This document shows, piece after piece, positions 52,560 to 64,000 of a stretch of DNA of 64,000 nt. The notes under the pieces are model-generated. The model searched no databases. It was not told the origin of the DNA and was given only the letters and a program-made list of their open reading frames with translations. Each line of letters opens with the position of its first letter. Position 1 is the stretch's first letter. This DNA is from Pseudocercospora fijiensis CIRAD86 (taxonomy: Eukaryota > Ascomycota > Dothideomycetes > Mycosphaerellales > Mycosphaerellaceae). Location of the stretch: the NCBI RefSeq assembly GCF_000340215.1, contig NW_006921541.1, positions 3,769,266 to 3,833,265 of the forward strand, written 5' to 3'. The translations under genes and the position numbers were made by a program.

Positions 52560-55445
52560 TATTTAAGCTATACTAACTTATAGCGTAGATTGCCGGTCTT
52601 ATAACTACGCCGTAGCGTTTCCCGAAGACCGTCTAGAAGTAGCAAGGATATCCTCGTAGGACTTGTAGCTAGTATTGCCGATATAACTAGTAAATACGAC
52701 TTAGTTGCCCTTCTAGTTAGTAATAGTTCCCTCCTAGGAGCTATCGTCGTAGTTGCGCTAAATACCTCGGATTATACGAGACTATAGTCGACTTAGAATA
52801 ATTAGCGTATTTAGGTCGGCGGTAATCTAGAAGGTAAAGGAAAAGCATATACCGAAGGCGTCTACTATAATATTATAGTAAGTACCTACTAGCGTAACCT
52901 CCCTATTTACTTCCTATATACCGAGGGAAATGTCTCTATTTATTAGTAGCCTAAGTTGTTTAGCCTAATGCTTACTTATAATAAGTAACTCCGAACTATT
53001 ATTAAGCATTGCTAGTATCTATTAACTATAGCTCCCGATAGTAACTTAAATATAGATAGCGGGAACGACGGCGAAGGAACGGGTAACTACGGAAATGTCT
53101 ATATTATTAGGGATAGAATAAAGTTCCTTAGGTCGAGGAGGTCCTACTCGACCGATTTGTTAGCTAGTAAACCGGATAGCCTTAATAGAGACTAAAACTA
53201 GAGTAGAGTCGGGATTATTACTATCCCCTCGGCCTATCTCCTTAACTCCCTCTTCGTTAGTATTATCGATAGTTTCTTAGTTCTCGTAGGTTACCGATTC
53301 GCCTTCTACTAACTCTTAGGTACCTAAAAATTTAGGAAGGAACTATAGGGAAGAGACGTCGATATAGTCTTCTCATCCCTATTTTCGTCGGAGGGTAGCG
53401 AGATCTTTTATAAAGGTAGTATCGTTAGGGATTCGGCTCTAGAATAGGTTAGTAGGCAAACCGTACGCTAGTAGCTCTTCTATAGACATATTAGACTTAA
53501 GGTCTAGGAACTATAAAGCCTAGAAGAGAGCGTTTGCCTTTATATCTATAGAGTTAGCTAGGCTAGTACTATACTTGTTTATATACCTATTAAAGCGAAA
53601 GCTCTTTAGATCGGATAACTTCCGCTTATAGGCCGGTAGATTAGCTAGCTCTAGGGTACTACTAATATCGGTAGTAACGTCTTCTATATCGACCTCTAGA
53701 GTCTCTAGGACGACTAGGCTCTCTATAGGTAGGGTACTAGGTACGGTACTAGATCGGGTAGCGCGGTCTATAGCTATCTAGAGAGTCTTAGTTTTAGCGG
53801 TTAACTCTCGTTATTATTTAGCCTTATCGGCCGCCTTGTTCTTTAGTACCTTAGTAGGGGCTGCCGTACTAGGGCGAGTAGGATTCTACGGGCTCTTACC
53901 CTTGTTTTAGGACTAGGTTTAGGACCTTATAGTAGCGTAGATATCTATACTATTCTTAGTAACCGCGTAAATATTAGTAACTACGTCCGGGTCCTAAGAA
54001 ACAAAGTTAACTTTAACGGGCTCGGTAGTACTATTACTACTTCGCTCCTTAACCTATTTAGCCCTAACCTTCTAAGTTTCTCGTTTAGTAATAGCGGCGA
54101 GGGTACTATTCCTAGTATCCTTAAACTCGATCTTACCGCTATACTTCTTTTCTAGAAAGGTCTTTAGCTAAGGCAGCTTCGGGGCTCTCCGATCCTATTC
54201 GAAATTAATCTTATCGCCGGTATCTATATAGTAGAATCGGCTATTTACTTATATAATAAGCTTCCTTTTAAGAAGCTCTTTCTAGATAGGGTAGGACGAT
54301 TAGATATATTTAAACCCGCTATATATCTAGCACTTGCTATCTAAGTTAGAATAGATCTTCCGTATAGCGTAGATATCTACTAAAGGGGCTTTAGGGTAGT
54401 TAGGGTCTAAAACCTAGTAGACTAGTAGTATATCGCCTAGTATAGTAGTATCGATAACTTCCCTAACTCGTTATAATATCTTCGCATTTAGGTTAAGTCG
54501 GGCTAGGGATTTAGCTAAGTCCGTAACGTCTTAAGAGTACTTAGTAATAGTAGGAGTTACGGTCTTAGGACTACTTTACGATTTAGGAAGGAACTTAGGT
54601 CCCTTACTTCCTAAGGCTTCTTTCCTAACCTACGCTAGGTTATTCCGGTCTTCGCCGTAGATAAACTTCCTCGTATCGGCTATACTATTAATATCGGCCT
54701 TAATATATACTAGGACCTCTTTGTATTTCCTAAAGCTCTTAGGATCGGCCTCGCTAAGCTTATAGCGACGGAAGATACGCTAAGCTATAGGCTACGGCAA
54801 TCCCTAGAGGAGTAGCCTCGTTCTCTAAGAGTTTTCGAGGTTACTCTACTCGATACCGTCCGCTAACTCGATAAATTCGCGGACGTACCCCTTTAGGTCG
54901 TTATCCTTAGTGCGCCTTACTAAGTAGAGGGCTTCGAGCTACGCGCGACTGCCTTTAATACGACGGCTATCGCGCTCCCGATACTCCCTTAGAAAGGCTA
55001 ACTTAAAGGTCTCCTAGTTAGTATTAGACTTATCGTCCTTTTCTAGGTAGCTAACTAGGATTCTAAGGGTTCGGTAAAGCTTAGTGCTAGTAGTCCTTAT
55101 AAGGGACCGGATCTTATACTAGTCGGACTCTCTATCGAGCTCGTACTTAATTAAGCCTTCCTTAAAACGCTCTATATATACTATAGCGTTCTACCCTTCG
55201 AATAAGGGATTTATACTACTCCCTAGTTCTAGCGGGCGACGTTTGTTTTAACGGAGAAGCTTAGTTTGCTTCTCAATTATCTTTATAAGGACAGTATAGA
55301 GCGCCTCTAGCGTAGAGAGCGTAGGAGGCTTACTTATATTAACTAGTCGCCGCCTAATTTCTTCGTTAATAGGATTAGGGGCGTTTTCGGATTTAGAGGA
55401 TTCCGCTAATTCTTAATACTCGTTTTCGCTAGAGCTAGAGCTTAT
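52560..55445 (-). pseudogene. A2 ORF1: gag and protease
   Basis: Inverted copy of A1 ORF1. The likely start is the ATA at 55445 (ATG before RIP). The zinc-knuckle region is near 54290-54340 and the protease-like part near 52760-53000. Same interruptions as in A1, with further TAG/TAA. Confidence 0.75.
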
Positions 55446-56253
55446 TCGATTATTATAAAATAGTTAAAATAAAATGCTATATTAAAATAAAATGCTATAT
55501 AAATGTGTTTTTAGTATCTTTAGTTTGTTTAGTTTATTATAATATTACTACGTAAGAGAATAGTATATTAGGCTATTTCTCCTAGTATTACCCCTAGGAT
55601 AGTATTAGGATTTAGCCTCCTAGGGGTCGCCTAACTACCTCTAGGAGCTTAGTTTAGTATTAGACGAAAGCCGCTCGGAGGGAGAGACTATAATCTCTAT
55701 TTATACCTAGATCCTAGAAACTAGCTTATATCTCCTTTAGCTAGGTAGGGGGGCGGTAGCCTTCTTTTTCTAGTAGAAGGCTAAGTACTATCTAAGCGAG
55801 GCTACGAATTTAGGAACGCCCTATCCGATTAATAGAGGACTCCCTAGCTATCCGACCTATAAGCCGTATTTGCTATTAATTAATAGTCTTAGCAAACTAA
55901 GTAAGGCCGATAGGTAATTAGTCTATCTCCTCCTTAGGCGGGGCTTATCTCGAGCAAGCGGTACTAAATAGGTCTTCGACCCGGAGCCGAGTCCTTAGAA
56001 GCTAGCTATAGCTATAGACTAGGCCCTAAGCTATAATAGTCCTAAGGGTTTATAGCTTTTCGGGATTAAAGAGATGCCCTCGTTAAGAGGTTCCTTCGCT
56101 TATCGTAATAGCCTCTTAAGATACTTCTATATCGTCTATATCGTAGGCTCTTATCGTGCCCTCGCTCTAGTTATAGCTATTCGTACCCTAGGACTACCTT
56201 CGATATACCCGAGCCTATTAGATATAAAGAGATAGCCCTACCTTCGGCTTTAA
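55446..56253 (-). other. A2 leader
   Basis: Counterpart of A1 621-1446, no ORF. It contains the near-palindrome at 55584-55606. Confidence 0.6.
55584..55606. repeat. 24 bp CCCSGGG near-palindrome, A2 copy 1
   Basis: AGTATTACCCC TAGG ATAGTATT, upstream of gag on the minus strand. Confidence 0.65.
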
Positions 56254-56320
56254 TAAAGGACGGAAACTAATACTAATACTACTACTAGCAGTAATAGTAT
56301 AGGCTACCGAGGGTAATATA
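56254..56320 (-). repeat. 5' LTR of A2, truncated
   Basis: Only the first 67 bp in this orientation (taaaggacgg to gggtaatata). In full LTRs acctatag follows; here the sequence changes to agttctagacc, the end of D-right. Confidence 0.88.
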
Positions 56321-56420
56321 AGTTCTAGACCTCGTAGTAGTTCGGGTTAGTTTAGTTTAGTTTACTAAGCCGAAACTCTAGTTTGGTTTAGGTTAGTTTA
56401 CTAAGTAACTATATAAGTAG
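56321..56420. repeat. terminal region of D-right
   Basis: tagacctcgtagtagttcgg corresponds to the D-left end at 33360. Subterminal sequence has several gttagttta units. A perfect terminal inverted repeat cannot be drawn because the other end is outside the window. Confidence 0.6.
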
Positions 56421-56507
56421 CTAGTTCGAACTATATAATTTATCGGTTTTTAAGAAGTATACGAATATATACGTAGCTTTAAGCAAGCCTTTTATAAGAC
56501 TTAGCAG

Positions 56508-56530
56508 TATAGCCGGTAGCGTAGCCGGTA
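56508..56530. repeat. D motif cluster 4
   Basis: tatagccggtagcgtagccggta, subterminal. Confidence 0.6.
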
Positions 56531-56755
56531 TTTTTAGTCCTTAGTACTTATAGAATTTTCGAATCCTACTTAGGCTACGTAGTTATATAAAGGTACTTAT
56601 ATAACCTTAAATCTAAAGACAATTAGCTAAGGGCACTAACTAATTAAAAGCATATATATATATATAAGGCATTATAGTTTAGTTCGGAAACTACACTCCT
56701 TAGGTATAAATTTTATCCTTTCGTTTACGGTTTAATTCCCTAACTACTTAGTAGA

Positions 56756-57210
56756 ATGTCTTTATCTAGATCTAGGTAGAACTTATCGATTTCCGTCGAA
56801 GCTCTCCTTAAGAAGTTCTAGCACTTTCCTACTAAACTATACTCTAATATTAAGTACTAGGATAGCTCCTCTCTCGATATCGGTACTATATACGAAACAG
56901 CTATAAGGTAGCTCTATAGGGCGTTCTACTAGTTACTCGCTATACTACGGCCGAATACTAGCTCGTTCCTTAGAACTCTAGGTTATTTAGTAGATATTAA
57001 GGATAGGATAGGTAGTAACTTCGTATTATATAAGGAAGTAGAGGCTACTATAGAGGAGTCCTTTAACCTATAGAAGATAGTAAAAGATATAGAGGTAGCT
57101 ATAGGTCTAGGTACCTAGTTAAATTTCTAGTAGGTAGAGTATAAGGATATTTAGTAGGAGTATTAGGTAGAGTTGCGAAAGTAGGTATATAATATAGTCT
57201 AGAGAATAGG
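56756..57210 (+). pseudogene. D: small unknown ORF, opposite strand to its neighbours
   Basis: Starts at ATG 56756 (MSLSRSRxNLSISVEALLKKF) and reads through TAG codons for about 150 residues (RPNTSSFLRTLGYLVDIKD, then EVEATIEESFNL). It ends near 57210 or continues after an intron. The stops fit Trp or Gln codons. No family is recognised. It is convergent with the H3-like gene at 57606. Confidence 0.42.
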
Positions 57211-57345
57211 GATAATGCCTATAACTATAAGTATTAGGTTCTTTAATCTTCCTCCTTTTTTCCTTATTTTCTTTTTATAAAAATCTAAACTAATACAAAT
57301 TAACTAGAATGTCTATCTTCTTTTAGTTCTTTATAAGACCTAGCA

Positions 57346-57380
57346 GCGTAGCCGGCAGCGTAGCCGGCAGCGTAGTCGGC
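57346..57380. repeat. D motif cluster 5
   Basis: Three units of cgtagccggcag between the small ORF and the H3-like gene. Confidence 0.6.
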
Positions 57381-57691
57381 CTTTTTACTTCTAAGCACTA
57401 ACGGGTTTTTCGAAGACTTCTATTCTATACGGCTAATAAAGTATACTATACTATATAGGTATGCTTAGAGAGTATTTAGAGCGCGGTATATAGCGCCGTA
57501 TAATAGCGGCTTATTTCGTATATAGAAAAGCTTATAGACGATACTACGAACATCCTTCCTACTAGTATATCTATCCTATCTAGCACTATCTCGAATATAG
57601 ACATTCTAGCCTTTTAGAATCTAATCGAGTGCTTTAAAATCCTTGTCTATAATCGTTATACGCTTCGCGTAGATAGCTATAAGGTTAACCG

Positions 57692-57739
57692 CTAAAATAG
57701 TATTAGTATAGTCCGAAAAGAGGTAGAAGAGAAATATAC
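57692..57739 (-). other. intron 2 of H3L-2 (48 bp)
   Basis: Minus strand gtatat to ttttag with tactaatac as branch site. Removing it joins RIFE to NLIAIYAKR, as in H3. Confidence 0.82.
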
Positions 57740-57922
57740 ATTCGAAGATACGAACTAGGTAGGCTTCTATAGCCTCTTAAAGGGCGCCTATCGCGGAGGC
57801 TTAGAAGCGAAGGTCCGTTCTATAATTCTAGGCAATTTCGCGAATAAGTCGTTAGAAAGGAGCTTTACGGATTAGGAGCTTAGAACTCTTCTAATACTGC
57901 CGAATCTTACGGAGGGCTACGG

Positions 57923-58001
57923 CTAAAGAAGGATTAGTAAAAAGATAGTAAGAATACCGGCTACGCTACCGGCTACGCTACCGGCTATAAATAGGACTTA
58001 C
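57923..58001 (-). other. intron 1 of H3L-2 (79 bp) with D motif cluster 6
   Basis: Minus strand gtaagt to tctttag with ttactaat. It contains three TAGCCGGTA units (57955-57989). Splicing joins RRxRLG to TVALRKIRQY, the H3 RYRPGTVALREIRRY segment. Confidence 0.85.
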
Positions 58002-58483
58002 TTCCTAGGCGCTATCGACGCTTCGTACGATTACTACTAGTAGTAGAAGCGCTAGTTATCGTCTTACGTAGAGCCTTACCCGCCGTTGTCTTACGCGGAG
58101 CCTTGCTCGCGACGCCCTTTCTAGTACCGGAGCTAGCGGTAGTAGTAGCAGCCCTCTTACGTTAATATACTATACTCGTTCTATTATTTCCGATCTTATT
58201 ACGACCCGTAGAAGTAGTAGGTCCCTTCTTGCGAGGCGTCGTAACTTAGTTAAGTAGACTCGCTATTATAAAAGTCGTCGAATTAAGGAAAAAAGTGCGT
58301 TACGAAGGTATACGAAGGCGCGCGTAGAGCGAGGGTATTACGGAGGTAGTAGATATAGAGCGTAGAAGTATAGATATCGATACGAAGGTTAAATATAGCG
58401 AGAGAGATAGTATCGCGGTATCGCTAGGTAATAGAGTAAGCTTCGCGTAAGCCTATATTATAGTAACGTTAGAGTAAGGAAAG

Positions 58484-58572
58484 AAGGCAGGTACGGCTAA
58501 AAAAGGCAGGTACGGCTAAAAAAGGCAGATACGGCTAAAAAAGGCAGATACGGCTAAAAAAGGCAGGTACGG
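58484..58572. repeat. 19 bp tandem repeat, about 4.6 units
   Basis: Unit aaggcaggtacggctaaaa; period exactly 19 at 58484, 58503, 58522, 58541 and 58560. Units 3 and 4 have gg to ga. The core tacggcta is one base short of the D motif taccggcta. Confidence 0.93.
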
Positions 58573-58584
58573 TAGACTTTAAAA

Positions 58585-58610
58585 TATAGCCGGTATATAT
58601 AGCCGGTATA
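58585..58610. repeat. D motif cluster 7
   Basis: tatagccggtatatatagccggta, adjacent to the 19 bp tandem array; a further single unit is at 58639-58650. Confidence 0.6.
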
Positions 58611-58699
58611 GTAATAGGCGAAAGCCTCCTTTTAATAAATAGCCGGCGTAATAATAGTATCCTACTATAGTATAGATATTCTTTAGTAATGCCTTTACT

Positions 58700-59510
58700 A
58701 GCTATAGTAATCTTATAAGTAACCTAGGCCTATTGCTAGTAAATATAAGAAATATTATATAGGCTATACTAAACAAGCTAGTTATTTAGTAGGAAAAGGC
58801 CTACTACCGTCTCTATATACCGGCTACGAGTGCCGGCTATCGCTCTAAATTTAACTCCGCCCTATCTCGGAGGCTAAGGTACCGAGCGGAAACCCTATAG
58901 CTTATATTTACTCGGTTGTCGCGGAGCGCTTATAGGTAAGGTATTAGAAAAGAGTATAAAAAGTACGAGAAGAGTATCCTAGGATATAGGTCGTAAGTAA
59001 ATAAGAGTAGTACGCCTAGTTATTTATATAGTACGTTACTCTATATAACTAAGAGCCTATATTATCTTATACTTCGCTTATAAGACCTCGACTCTACTAG
59101 TATACTATCGATCTCCTCCTCGGTCGCTAATATACTATCTTTATTCTTCTTCGAGTTGCCGGACTTAGTATGTATCTATAGCTATACAATAGCGCTACGT
59201 ATTATAGAGAGTTTCTCGTTAAAGTTTCTCTCTCGTAGGCTTGCTATCTGCCTCGTAGTATAGAGGATTAAAGTGCTAATACTAAAGAATCTCCTTATAG
59301 TTAGGATACTAGGGCTTCTTAGAACCTTTATATTTTAGGTCTAAATAGAGACGTATTATAAACGTTCTATCGCCCTTTCGCTTACTATCCGCTAGGTCGC
59401 GATATACGAAGAAACTAATCTAAATATAGCTCGTCTCTATAATAGCCGGGTAAATATAGAGCGCTAGGTTTCTACTTCGTACCTTAGACTTAGGGACAGC
59501 GCGGAGATAA
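58700..59510 (-). pseudogene. D: unknown ORF between the two H3-like genes
   Basis: Minus-strand frame from AVPKSKVRSRNLALYIYP through VYRDLADSKRKGDRTFII, LDLKYKGSKKP and ERNFNEKLSIIRSAIV to an acidic stretch ILATEEEIDSILVES. TAG/TAA fall at plausible Gln and Trp positions. It is bounded by D motif clusters at 59520 and 58817. I recognise no domain with confidence. It is co-oriented with the transposase and both H3-like genes. Confidence 0.42.
58817..58840. repeat. D motif cluster 9
   Basis: taccggctacgagtgccggcta. Confidence 0.55.
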
Positions 59511-59519
59511 AATTAGAAA

Positions 59520-59543
59520 TATAGCCGGTACCTATAGCCGGTA
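59520..59543. repeat. D motif cluster 10
   Basis: tatagccggtacctatagccggta, just downstream of H3L-1. Confidence 0.6.
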
Positions 59544-59602
59544 AAAGGATACGAAAATAGGCCTCCTCCTAGGTTAATCTAATAACTAAATACAATTTCT
59601 AA

Positions 59603-60244
59603 CTAATCCGCTATAAACCGACGCCGAATTTTAGCTAGAAGCTATATATCTTTATTTTAAAGAGTAACCCGCTTCGTATAGATAGTAAGGAGGTTTAAAA
59701 GCTTAAGCTCGGTTACGAGAAATGCCTCTATAGCTTCCTAAAGAGTACTAATCGCCTTAGCCGTAAATCGTATACTAGACCGAAAATCTAATATAATTTC
59801 TTAAATAAGTCGCTAGAAGGGAGTCTTAGGGATTAAAAGCTCGGTCCCTCTTTTGTTTTAGAAAAGCTAAATCTAGCGAAGGGTAATAGTACCTAGTTTA
59901 AAGCGCCGCTTCTTTATCGTCGAGTCCTACCTTGTTCCCTTTCTTTTAATAGAAAGATAACTTTTCTTCGCGATAGTCTTCGTCCGCCTACTCTTTTTAG
60001 CCTTCTCCTATCTATCTATAGCCTTCTTGTTTTTCGGTACTATTTTCCGAGGAACCCCCTTCCTTCGTATATACTACGGAGAGCCTTACTCTTCCGATAT
60101 CTCGTTCTCGCTATAGTCTCCCTATACTTAGCTTGCTTTATCCTTGCCCTTTAGCCTCTAAAGATATTTATCTACGCGTTTAGGTAACGAGGGTATATCG
60201 GTAGGACCTAGAAAATTAATAAGTATATAATCGTAAGGAGACAT
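59603..60244 (-). pseudogene. histone H3-like gene, single exon (H3L-1)
   Basis: Minus strand, intact ATG at 60244 to a TAG at 59603-59605; 213 codons in one frame without a shift, against about 136 in canonical H3. The N-terminal part of some 110 residues is basic (RRKGVPRKIVPKNKKAID, later KKSRRTKTIAKKS). The histone fold then reads KLGTITLR, GTELLIPKTPF, RLI, IRF, AISTL, EAIEAFLV, then LLTIYTKRVTL and NKDI. About 15 TAG/TAA and no TGA interrupt it. Three of them replace the conserved Gln of PFQRL, LQEA and DIQL, exactly as RIP of CAG predicts. One or two extra residues follow the QK of helix N. The long divergent tail and fold are CENP-A-like, but I cannot assign it to CENP-A. Co-oriented with the transposase upstream. 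Confidence 0.85.
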
Positions 60245-60529
60245 TAATGCTTCTTACCTTCTAGAACAAACAGTCTTCTATTAAACCGCCTTAGTAGGTT
60301 ATCGTTAGATTCGAATAAAGGATAGTAGCTTAAGGAAGGGGAAGTAGCCGGCTTAGGAAGGCCCGAAGAGCCGAATCCTTAAGGTATATTTATCTTTAAG
60401 AATATAAGGAAAGGGAAGAAGGAGAGGAAGAGCGAATAGAGAATTAGAAATAGTCCGTAGGTAAGCGGGATCGGTTACTATAGCAACTAGTCTATTTAGG
60501 TCCTAGGAATTCGAAATATATTTCGGATA

Positions 60530-60555
60530 TATACCGGCTATATATACCGGCTATA
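60530..60555. repeat. D motif cluster 11
   Basis: tataccggctatatataccggcta, between the transposase end and H3L-1. Confidence 0.6.
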
Positions 60556-60600
60556 TTACCTTATACGTAAACGCTTCGTCTCCTTAAAGCTACTCTAAGC

Positions 60601-62930
60601 CTATATACGTTTCCGCTTCTCGACCCGGTATCGCCTTCTACCTCCGCCCTCCTCCTCTTCGTTATCGCTAATTAGGGTTTCGCTTAGACTAAATTTCGTA
60701 TTCTCTTTATACTCCTAGGTTTCTTCGATTTTAAGGTTTTCTAATTCCTCGATTAACTCCTTTAGTATAATCTTTAGTAACCTACCTTAGCGATTCTAGT
60801 AGAGGAGATAGTATCGGAATACTATAATAGATTCGAAGGTAGTAGGCGAGTATATTCGATTAAAGCGGCCCTAGTAACGAGCGATACTAAAAGACCTCTT
60901 ATAGCCTATACCTATACTCGGGATAGCGAGGACGTCCCGAGCGACCGACGCTATCGTTAGAAACTTAGGCTCTAACCGCTACTATATAGCGAGAATATCG
61001 TCTCCGAATTCGTCTAGAAGACCGGTAAGATCTAGAGATTATTAGCCCTCTTTCCGAGCCTACGGGTTTATACTTACTTACGCGCCGATAGAGATCGAAC
61101 TCTTCTTTATTTACTTTAGTAGTTACTTCCTCTTCTACCTCTACTTCTTATCTACGAAATAGGTATAATATCGGAGCCTTCTAAACCTTCTTTTTCTTTA
61201 TAGGAGCTATATTTAGACTAGTTTCTTTCCGATACTCGTAGAATATCTTTTCTAGAATAGTCTAGTAATGCTTCGGCTATACCTCGTCTACCTTCTATTC
61301 TAGCCTCTACTAGTATATATCCTTTTCTACCGGGTTAAGTAAGTACGTAACGCTATAGATATCCCCGAACGACTTAAAGATAGTACTATAATATTTATAT
61401 AACTTAGTATAGGAGGTGTCTATAGCTTTCGTTATAGCTACTTTCTAGAGAACGCTCTTCTTAGCTAGCTTAGCTACGGTTTCCTCGAGCTCGTTAAAGA
61501 GCTAGTTATAGTACGTAAAGATAAGGTAGATCGTCGGTCCTTAGGTTCTTCTAATCGTAGTAGTAACCTTCGCGTAATACTTACTAATATCGACGAGATA
61601 CTCTACTTAGCGCTATTCGGCGGCGGTAAGGCTAAGCTACTTAATACCCTCGGAACTCTAATAGATCTCGAGAGCGGTACTTAAAGTATATCCTCTCGTA
61701 ACTATATAGAAAGTCGAATCGAACCGGGTCTTAACGTCTTAGGTAAAACAGAGTAGGCGCTAAGGAGGCCGCTTTTACTATCGCTTATTCTATACGATAT
61801 TCTAGGTATCGGTTTTAGGGCGCTCGATTGGGTTCTTTTAAATAGCCTCGAATCGGTTATATCTCTATAAGCTCGAGTTCGTATATATTACTAGACGACG
61901 AAGCTAGAGAAAAAGAGTAAGAACTATACTAGGTTGCCGGCTATAGGTACCGGCTACGGATAAAAGTTATATCTAATACAAAACGAGAGCGAGGCTCTCT
62001 ACCTTATCCTGTCTTATTACTATAATAAGTTTCTCGACTTTCGACTTTGCTTTATCTTTATCTAGGATCTTCTGTTAGTCGTCGTTTAATAGTGCAATTT
62101 TAAGCGTCTTAAAGAGGGCTCGGATCGCGATTTAAACTATATAAGCGAGGTAGGGAAACTTCTATAGGGATATAACTAGTAACGACGTCGGCTCCGATTT
62201 AATAGGGCTAGGGCTATTAATAGGCTCCTTTTTATCGTTATTATCGTACGTATTATCGTACGTATCCGGAATCGTAGCGAGCCTAATATTCGGAAGATTA
62301 AGCTAGATTATAGACCTTATAATCTCTTCTACGTACTCGACCCTATCGATATAATTAGTAATTTTAAAGATATATACGAGTAAATTGTATATATAACGCC
62401 TTATATAATGTTCGATTATTACTAGCGTTATCCGTAGTAATCGAGATTAGTTTCGTTATTACGCTAACCCTATCTATTACCGTATAAATAAGCTTCGCTA
62501 TATCCTTACTAGTATAGGAACCTAGAATTTTAGGGAATCCGATTATAAGTTCCTAGAGTTTCTAATCCGAATTAATAAAGTATAGTATAATCGAAAGAAA
62601 GGAGGCTCTTATAGTCCGGCTTAACTAGCTATCGATAGTAATAGCTACTCGGCGAGTATTACGGAGGATCTCCCGAATATCGTCTAACGTAGCCTCTTTA
62701 TTCTTTTCGAATATAATACGCTAGGTTGTCGCGCCGAGAAATAGGGGAGGGTAGTTTATAAGATATAGGTATATCTTCTATATAGACTCCCTTTTGTAGA
62801 AGTCTTCCGGAAGACCGTTTATAGCTAGTATTTCGTTTACTAGTTGCTTAAAGTCTTCGGGGGAGAAATCGGTAGCCTTTAATCCTAGAGCTTCCTTAAG
62901 TATAGCCTATAATAATTAGCTAGACCTCTA
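60601..62930 (-). pseudogene. D: hAT transposase
   Basis: Catalyses excision and insertion of the element. Minus strand: DFSPEDFKQLVNEILAI near 62860, VAITIDS near 62630 (family TxDxWTS), then the hallmark ISITTDNASNN at 62417-62437. AHIVQIAIRALFKTLKI is near 62085-62145 (the family's RCxAHxxNL block; the Cys is Tyr in the sequence). VKTRFDST is near 61720, and NxLFNELEETV near 61490. The C-terminal dimerisation domain near 60850-60960 has FLTIASVARDVLAIPSIGIG followed by RSFSIAR. An acidic, then basic tail ends near 60601. At least one frame change and one motif-bearing putative intron (61935-61957) interrupt it. Distinct from hAT E. Confidence 0.88.
61935..61957. repeat. D motif cluster 12, within the transposase gene
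   Basis: tgccggctataggtaccggcta. It lies where the hAT frame breaks between the AHIVQ block and VKTRFDST, and ctctttttctctag follows on the minus strand, so an intron is likely. Confidence 0.6.
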
Positions 62931-62943
62931 CGGTTAATTTAAG

Positions 62944-63004
62944 TAGCCGGAATCTATAGCCGGAATCTATAGCCGGTAGCTATAGCCGGTAGCTATAGCC
63001 GGTA
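62944..63004. repeat. D motif cluster 13, five units
   Basis: tagccggaatctatagccgg and related units up to 63004; the longest cluster, at the upstream edge of the transposase. D-left breaks off right here because C3 inserted beside it. Confidence 0.7.
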
Positions 63005-64000
63005 TTTTAGAAGACGTACCTCTTTCTAGAACGCTATATCTATATTAACTCTCCTCTCTCCTTAAGATTCCCGATACCGTTTAGAATAGAGATAGTTCGT
63101 AGGCGATAAGTTCCTATCCCCTAGTTTTAGGTATTTTAAGATTAAACCGTAGAAGTTATAGACAATTACTAGTTAACCTTTAAGTCGAGAAGTCGTATAA
63201 CGGTATAATACCCCCTCTATAAAGAACTTCTAGAATGTGTCCGTTCGCTCTTTACTCCCTTATCGCATCGAGTACTTCCGGAGTTTATACTCCTTTAAAC
63301 GTAAGTATAAAGGGAACTATATCTTATAGACCTATTAATTAAACTGCTCTATATACTCGGGTTTCTAAAGATACGCCTAGCTAGCCTTTTCGAAGATTTC
63401 CGGGTTAATAATCGATATTCTTATATCTCCGAATAACCTTCTACTTAGACTCCGTAAAGGTAAGGACTAGGTAGTAGTACCCTATAATAAATTCCTACTA
63501 CTAGGATTCGGAGAGGATAAATCTAGCCCTAATCGTCGTTTAGGACTCGATAGGCTCGAAGGTAAGTATACGACCTCCTCTCGACGTTATCGTAATCTCG
63601 CTCGTATACTAGACTATTTCGACTATTATCTCGTTATTACCCTTCCTAGTATAGCGCCTAGTATATATACAATATCGGTCGGTATGTTTTAAGGTTTTAT
63701 ACGGTAAGGTAAGGACTTAGGAGTAGTAGATATATACTAGTAGCTATAGGGAAACACCCTTTCTTTTATAGTATCGTATCGTTAGGAATAGCTAGGTAGT
63801 AAATAGCTAGCTACGTTTTTTTGTTTCCTAGCTACCTAACTACTAGATTTTTTTTTCCTAGCTACCCTAGCTAGCCTAACTACTAGAATTTCTTTCCTAG
63901 CTACCCTAACTACCTAAATTTTGCCTTCTATATAGCGGCTCTCTCCTACTAACGGAACCGAGCTACTATACCTAACGAATCTAAGCTCGTTTTTAGTCTT
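63005..64000 (-). other. D-right upstream region, matching D-left
   Basis: Matches 43217 back to 43017 and 35901 back to 35108 inverted, with the C2 insertion site empty here. It carries the same coding-like segments (EITITSRGGYILAFEPIES equivalent near 63600) and the GTAGCTAGG repeats (63787-63912). It is cut by the end of the window. Confidence 0.85.
63787..63912. repeat. TTTCCTAGCTACC repeats in D-right
   Basis: Inverted counterpart of 35198-35330: several tttcctagctacc units separated by T-runs. Confidence 0.7.

What the first reader, a model, noticed from the sequence alone, without database searches (positions are those of the whole stretch)
59603..60244. A divergent histone H3-like gene inside a hAT transposon (H3L-1)
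Seen: a single 213-codon frame with a long basic N terminus and an H3 fold (GTITLR, TELLIP, EAIEAFLV, KRVTL). Stops sit exactly at the conserved glutamines of PFQRL, LQEA and DIQL. Known: RIP turns CAG into TAG. Inference: D carried a functional H3 variant before RIP. A mobile element that encodes its own H3 variant could alter nucleosomes on itself or at centromere-like heterochromatin, or it may be a passive capture. I recall a report of gene transduplication by DNA transposons in Pyrenophora, possibly involving histone H3, but cannot check it.
Basis: partly seen in the sequence, partly recalled or inferred. Interest (0 to 1): 0.9.

Follow-up and report, generated by a model that had tools for sequence, protein, structure and literature searches.

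The report
Histone H3 genes inside dead transposon
A jumping gene present in very many mutated copies in what looks like a banana-pathogen fungus carries two altered copies of the DNA-packaging protein histone H3; this is already in print, but one copy turns out to have introns and to look as if it was once kept as a working protein.

Summary
On the MINUS strand, window 59603-60244 is a 213-codon frame with a histone H3 fold (PF00125, E 1.4e-21), 15 internal TAG/TAA stops and no TGA. It sits in a hAT element starting at window 56326; nine other copies have both 20-bp ends, seven with identical 8-bp duplications. The genome fits Pseudocercospora fijiensis, where Dhillon et al. 2019 (PMC6710886) described this element as RIP-killed: the core finding is known.

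Points I did not see in what I read of that paper: (1) the second H3-like copy is a different gene (H3L-2, about 57.6-58.3 kb, minus) with two introns; the published '16-residue insertion' is its 48-nt second intron, so capture of an intronless transcript does not fit H3L-2. (2) Element families A, B and C carry both genes (one whole copy each of B and C seen). (3) In the spliced frame the H3L-2 fold shows constraint (omega 0.38-0.67, five of six tests p<0.05; wrong frames 0.71-2.15). For H3L-1, the finding's gene, constraint is only suggestive. Both group with H3, not CenH3. Most likely these were H3-derived proteins encoded by the element; their role is unshown.

The parts
56326..64000 (.). 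hAT element (family A), left end to window end; its right end lies outside the window, where the genome record is withheld (N)
   Evidence: similarity to other copies begins at 56326 in 8 of 9 and at 56325 in 1 of 9; those nine copies are 9565-9957 bp
56326..56345 (+). left 20-bp terminal inverted repeat
   Evidence: both ends found (up to 2 mismatches) in 9 of 9 other copies; identical 8-bp flanks in 7 of 9
60556..61029 (-). C-terminal part of the hAT transposase frame (weak Dimer_Tnp_hAT match at about 60880-60996)
   Evidence: PF05699 at 14.2-16.4 bits, below the cut-off of 21.4; frame found in 12 of 12 copies; RIP-masked omega 0.42, 0.27, 0.27, transversion-only 0.27, 0.70, 0.55 (not significant)
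59603..60244 (-). H3L-1, the gene of the finding: 213-codon H3-like frame with about 80-residue N-terminal extension, 15 internal stops
59624..59893 (-). H3L-1 histone fold (codons 118-207)
60008..60244 (-). H3L-1 N-terminal extension, codons 1-79; alignable in families A, B and C
   Evidence: no significant constraint
58002..58280 (-). H3L-2 exon with H3-like tail (KAPRK-type repeats); start of the gene not determined, limits approximate
   Evidence: tail test (3 of 2000 shuffles reach the window row's score)
57923..58001 (-). H3L-2 intron 1, 79 nt, GTAAGT...ACTAAT...TTTAG, phase 1
57740..57922 (-). H3L-2 exon 2 (TVALRKIRQYQ... to ...RIFE): alpha-N to alpha-2 of the H3 fold
57692..57739 (-). 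H3L-2 intron 2, 48 nt (here GTATAT...CTAAT...TTTTAG; GTATGT donor in 4 of 10 family-A copies); read in print as a 16-residue insertion
57594..57691 (-). H3L-2 exon 3 (VNLIAIYAKRITIIDKDFKAL...), 3' end approximate

Best explanation
This is a RIP-killed copy of the Pseudocercospora H3-carrying hAT transposon. Shown here: on one strand the element bears, in order, a hAT-type transposase frame (domain match below cut-off), H3L-1 (N-terminally extended, diverged H3) and H3L-2 (H3 with two introns and a repeated KAPRK-type tail). Three diverged families of the element carry both genes. Inferred: at least one H3 gene was taken in before the families split, probably as genomic DNA (H3L-2 has a phase-1 intron one codon from the host H3's second intron). 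Both then evolved as proteins encoded by the element, with relaxed but real constraint on the fold, and RIP later put stops into the copies. The most likely role while alive, unproven, is an H3 variant made from the element that entered nucleosomes or competed for H3 chaperones or tail-modifying enzymes and so eased silencing of the element. None of the scored copies could make a full-length product.
For: H3 fold and stops. Copy number: 150 scored places for H3L-1 (851 candidates); for H3L-2 exon 2, 149 places with stops plus the intact host H3 (778 candidates). Ends and duplications. Species fit: 73.94 Mb, contig 1 of 11.88 Mb, intact H3 on contig 6 against 74 Mb, largest scaffold 11.8 Mb (PMC4981457 passages) and H3 on scaffold 6 (PMC6710886 Results). 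Families B and C with both genes, one whole copy each. Introns: both found in 12 of 12 copies with the relaxed patterns and in 3 of 6 further loci; intron 1 lengths 67, 69, 79, 91, 103 and 116 nt cover all three remainders mod 3, and the frame joins as ..LG-TVAL.. after removal. Constraint: H3L-2 fold transversion-only omega 0.38 (A-C, p 0.002) and 0.54 (B-C, p 0.048), RIP-masked 0.43, 0.40, 0.49 (p 0.023, 0.002, 0.014), wrong frames 0.71-2.15. Transposase end RIP-masked 0.27 against C (p about 0.001). Conservative divergence from host H3: 0-8 of 400 neutral simulations reach the observed value in each of 16 tests. Tail of H3L-2 is H3-like: 3, 0, 38 and 0 of 2000 shuffles for rows win, c26, B and C.
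Against: H3L-1 itself shows no constraint by transversions alone (0.80, 1.05, 1.79) and none by codon position (15 of 37 changes at third positions, Fisher p 0.22); only RIP-masked values of 0.45 and 0.31 against family C (p 0.06, 0.025), with 1.03 for A-B. Its N-terminal extension shows none, and one wrong frame there scored 0.35 (p 0.007), so the test is noisy. H3L-2 A-B transversions: 0.67, not significant; the H3L-2 tail shows no constraint (0.60-1.38, none significant). The transposase control is not significant by transversions (0.27, 0.70, 0.55). In 3 of 6 further loci the intron-1 pattern was not found and was not pursued; with the stricter patterns intron 1 was found in 11 of 12 and intron 2 in 7 of 12. 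Simulated neutral drift of the fold would leave no stop in 11% of runs, so an open frame alone proves little. The H3L-1 plus H3L-2 grouping has weak support (82/73). Pairwise tests share lineages and are not independent. No expression data. The structure model was poor (mean pLDDT 48.6).
Confidence: 0.6

Rival explanations
1. Passive transduplication: a host H3 transcript or retrocopy was trapped in the hAT, hitch-hiked to high copy, had no function and was erased by RIP (the published reading, PMC6710886).
For: 150 of 150 scored copies carry stops; H3L-1 has no intron in the fold; transversion-only omega for H3L-1 is about 1; the paper reports intronless, mostly truncated H3-like copies.
Against: H3L-2 has two introns with conserved signals; both genes recur in three element families; conservative divergence and H3L-2 fold constraint.
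Confidence: 0.25
2. An already diverged, functional host H3 variant gene was captured; the conservative changes pre-date capture, and the copies then drifted inside the element.
For: Conservative divergence from canonical H3 does not date the selection; H3L-1 is almost unconstrained between families.
Against: Among the 150 scored PF00125 places (772 candidates) only H3 (C6) and CenH3 (C5) are free of stops (a capped list); the H3L-2 fold is constrained between element families.
Confidence: 0.13
3. A centromeric H3 (CenH3) relative carried by the element.
For: Long, unconserved N-terminus and two extra residues between alpha-N and alpha-1 in H3L-1 (alignment).
Against: The tree separates host CenH3 and P0003-P0005 from the H3L rows (96/94); H3L rows group with host and yeast H3 (89/78).
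Confidence: 0.02

Closest known systems
hAT element with histone H3-like sequences of Pseudocercospora fijiensis (Dhillon et al. 2019, PMC6710886)
   Same: 20-bp ends, 8-bp duplications, full-length copies of 9.5-9.9 kb, one or two H3-like copies per element, hundreds of RIP-damaged copies, CA to TA bias, original H3 on scaffold 6: almost certainly the same element in the same genome.
   Different: The paper reads the 16-residue difference as an insertion and the source as an intronless transcript; here it is a 48-nt intron, with a second intron upstream, in a gene distinct from H3L-1. The paper reports DUF659 but not the dimerisation domain; here a weak dimerisation match is seen and DUF659 is not. 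I did not read its supplements.
H3L-carrying hAT of Pyrenophora tritici-repentis (Manning et al. 2013, PMC3538342)
   Same: hAT with transposase, a further frame and an N-terminally altered H3-like gene that matches neither H3 nor CenH3 fully (passages).
   Different: 26 nearly identical H3L copies, 24 without frameshift, with ESTs; elements of about 5.6 and 2.3 kb (passages); PMC6710886 found no similarity between the hAT sequences. Not compared by sequence here.

Membership tests
Histone H3 | histone fold with H3 as nearest family | tested here: met
   PF00125 above cut-off; best solved matches are H3; H3 side of the tree
Histone H3 | H3 N-terminal tail (ARTKQTARKSTGGKAPRK) | tested here: inconclusive
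   H3L-2: met in part (KAPRK module; 3, 0, 38, 0 of 2000 shuffles). H3L-1: not better than shuffles when any tail segment is allowed (280-1411 of 2000); with residues 1-13 fixed, 17-183 of 2000
Histone H3 | assembles into nucleosomes | not testable with these tools
   no experiment; AlphaFold model too poor
CenH3 | groups with CenH3 in a tree | tested here: not met
hAT transposon | 8-bp target site duplication and short inverted ends | tested here: met
   7 of 9 copies identical, 9 of 9 with both ends; the family-C copy too, while in the family-B copy only the right end was found
hAT transposon | transposase with hAT dimerisation domain | tested here: inconclusive
   PF05699 14.2-16.4 bits, cut-off 21.4, in one copy each of families A, B and C; DUF659 not found in window 60300-64000 at E up to 5
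RIP-inactivated repeat | CpA depletion with TpA excess, stops from CAR codons | tested here: met
   (CA+TG)/(AC+GT) 0.11 and TA/AT 1.89 in the element, against 1.27 and 0.55 at host H3; CAA/CAG kept in some of 10 copies at 6 of 15 internal stops
P. fijiensis H3-hAT of PMC6710886 | size, ends, two H3-like copies, genome | tested here: met
   the organism name itself is inferred, G000 is unnamed

The most novel reading that the evidence does not exclude
A DNA transposon lineage that kept two H3-derived genes as its own working genes over the divergence of several element families, using self-made H3 variants (one with a multiplied K9/K14/K18-like tail) against the host's H3-based silencing, until RIP ended it.
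Probability: 0.25. Interest if true: 0.85.

Novelty: already known. Interest (0 to 1): 0.45.

Why it matters
The element and its RIP death are in print. What changes is the reading of how H3 got in and whether it mattered: introns in H3L-2 argue against a trapped transcript, and codon-level constraint on its fold argues that the element used at least one H3 protein. If so, transposons have carried histones as tools, and the intact Pyrenophora H3L copies become a direct test case.

Tried and rejected
Transversion-only and codon-position counts on H3L-1 gave no constraint; kept as evidence against. A search for H3L-1 relatives among 5.8 billion proteins gave 4 hits, by eye H3-like and CenH3-like histones; one for the transposase end gave none. 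A search of solved structures for the transposase end was made in a neighbouring frame by mistake and says nothing. The 21 DUF659 hits and 47 dimerisation-domain hits of the genome were not matched to H3L elements. The minus strand of L015 was never scanned against Pfam. AlphaFold of H3L-1 was too poor for a fold search, so none was run. An Rfam scan of the window was empty at gathering thresholds. The idea that H3L-1 keeps the ARTKQTARKS tail was dropped. The centromeric reading was dropped. Papers: PMC6710886 outline and abstract, Results in full, Discussion part 1 of 2 and passages; PMC3538342 and PMC4981457 passages only. No supplements read. Searches for prior reports: (other papers seen as listings only); I saw no statement of introns in the element's H3 genes, or of selection on them, in what I read.

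Full report
What is there. The frame lies on the minus strand of window 59603-60244. Read with TAG/TAA as Gln it is a 214-residue protein with one Pfam family, PF00125 Histone, E 1.4e-21, and its best solved relatives are H3 chains. It has 15 internal stops, none TGA. Among 10 family-A copies, 6 of the 15 keep CAA or CAG in at least one copy, while 2 of the 15 (codons 126 and 148) are Arg codons in 9 of 10 copies, so they are not former Gln. Five of the eight stops in the fold fall on the seven Gln of the host H3 (P 2.5e-5).

The element. Nine other copies were fetched from near the top of the list of 150 scored places. Similarity to the window starts at 56326 in 8 of 9 and at 56325 in 1 of 9. 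All nine have both 20-bp ends, lengths 9565-9957 bp, and 7 of 9 have identical 8-bp flanks, as expected for hAT. The window copy runs beyond the window and its right flank is withheld, so its own duplication was not checked. The transposase lies upstream on the same strand; its C-terminal frame gives a sub-threshold Dimer_Tnp_hAT match and was found in 12 of 12 copies.

Which organism. G000 has 73,937,190 bases, contig 1 is 11,880,248 bases, and the intact H3 is on contig 6. This fits P. fijiensis CIRAD86: 74 Mb, largest scaffold 11.8 Mb (PMC4981457 passages), original H3 on scaffold 6 and 784 H3-like copies in 471 hAT elements, the full-length ones 9.5-9.9 kb (PMC6710886 Results).

The second gene. 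The window copy and each of the nine others have a second H3-like match about 2 kb away on the same strand, at 57627-57923 in the window. It is a different gene, closer to H3 in the fold. The '16-residue insertion' of the paper reads as an intron, GTATGT...CTAAT...TTTTAG, 48 nt. RIP has changed the donor in part: its first G is kept in 5 of 10 family-A copies and the whole GTATGT in 4 of 10. Removing it gives ..FE-SV-NL.. against ..FE-DT-NL.. of H3. A second intron, GTAAGT...CTAAT...TTAG, separates an H3-like tail from ..TVAL..; its length is 67, 79 or 91 nt in family A, 69 in B, and 91, 103 or 116 in C. These lengths cover all three remainders mod 3, yet the spliced junction reads ..LGTVAL.. 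in 15 of the 15 loci where it was found; in c14 a duplication just after it shifts the frame. With strict patterns intron 1 was found in 11 of 12 and intron 2 in 7 of 12; with patterns that allow RIP-changed donors, both in 12 of 12 and in 3 of 6 further loci. The intron sits one codon after the position of the host H3's second intron (sequence). A captured, intronless transcript does not explain this gene.

Families. Elements B and C (one whole copy each; about 88% and 80% identical to A over the right part) carry both genes in the same order. Indels in H3L-1 between A, B and C keep the frame in most rows; L031 is shifted upstream and L038 looks chimeric there.

Selection. RIP makes only transitions, here mainly at CpA/TpG, so I counted transversions alone, and all changes with RIP-able sites masked, in the true and two wrong frames (order A-B, A-C, B-C). 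H3L-2 fold: transversions 0.67, 0.38, 0.54 (p 0.39, 0.002, 0.048); masked 0.43, 0.40, 0.49 (p 0.023, 0.002, 0.014); wrong frames 0.71-2.15. H3L-2 tail: 0.60-1.38, none significant. Transposase end: transversions 0.27, 0.70, 0.55 (none significant); masked 0.42, 0.27, 0.27 (p 0.067, 0.001, 0.001). H3L-1 fold: transversions 0.80, 1.05, 1.79; masked 1.03, 0.45, 0.31 (p 0.79, 0.06, 0.025). H3L-1 extension: 0.65-2.33, none significant, and one wrong frame gave 0.35 (p 0.007), which warns against over-reading. The pairs are not independent. Against the host H3, changes in both genes are much more conservative than neutral simulations: 0-8 of 400 reach the observed value in each of 16 tests. That shows selection at some time, not necessarily inside the element, and takes the host H3 as ancestor.

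Relationships. H3L-1 and H3L-2 fall with host and yeast H3 (89/78), apart from host CenH3 and P0003-P0005 (96/94); their own sister grouping is weak (82/73). The H3L-2 tail resembles H3 6-26 (3, 0, 38 and 0 of 2000 shuffles in four rows); the H3L-1 tail does not pass when any tail segment is allowed.

Verdict. The finding is real and already described for what is almost certainly this genome. The functional-variant idea is plausible for H3L-2 and only suggestive for H3L-1. Any effect on chromatin is inference.

Noticed in passing
window 57343-57380, 57955-57987, 58584-58610, 60527-60560, 62944-63004: Related 12-13 bp units (TAGCCGGYAGCG-like) recur as short tandem arrays in several places of the element, including inside H3L-2 intron 1, where copy number changes intron length.
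   Followed up: partly
window 58480-58572: A 19-bp tandem array (4.9 copies) lies between H3L-2 and H3L-1.
   Followed up: no
window 52689-56321: The stretch left of the element also matches DNA beside copy c14 (84% and 83% identity), so another repeat probably abuts the element.
   Followed up: no
L029 (contig 5, 605800-607000): Intact host CenH3 gene with an intron, used as a tree control.
   Followed up: partly
L031 (contig 20, 3200-4500): A more diverged H3L-1 copy whose N-terminal part is frame-shifted; possibly a fourth element family.
   Followed up: partly
H3L-2 tail, about window 58002-58130: A KAPRKTTAG-type unit is repeated and varies in number between copies.
   Followed up: partly
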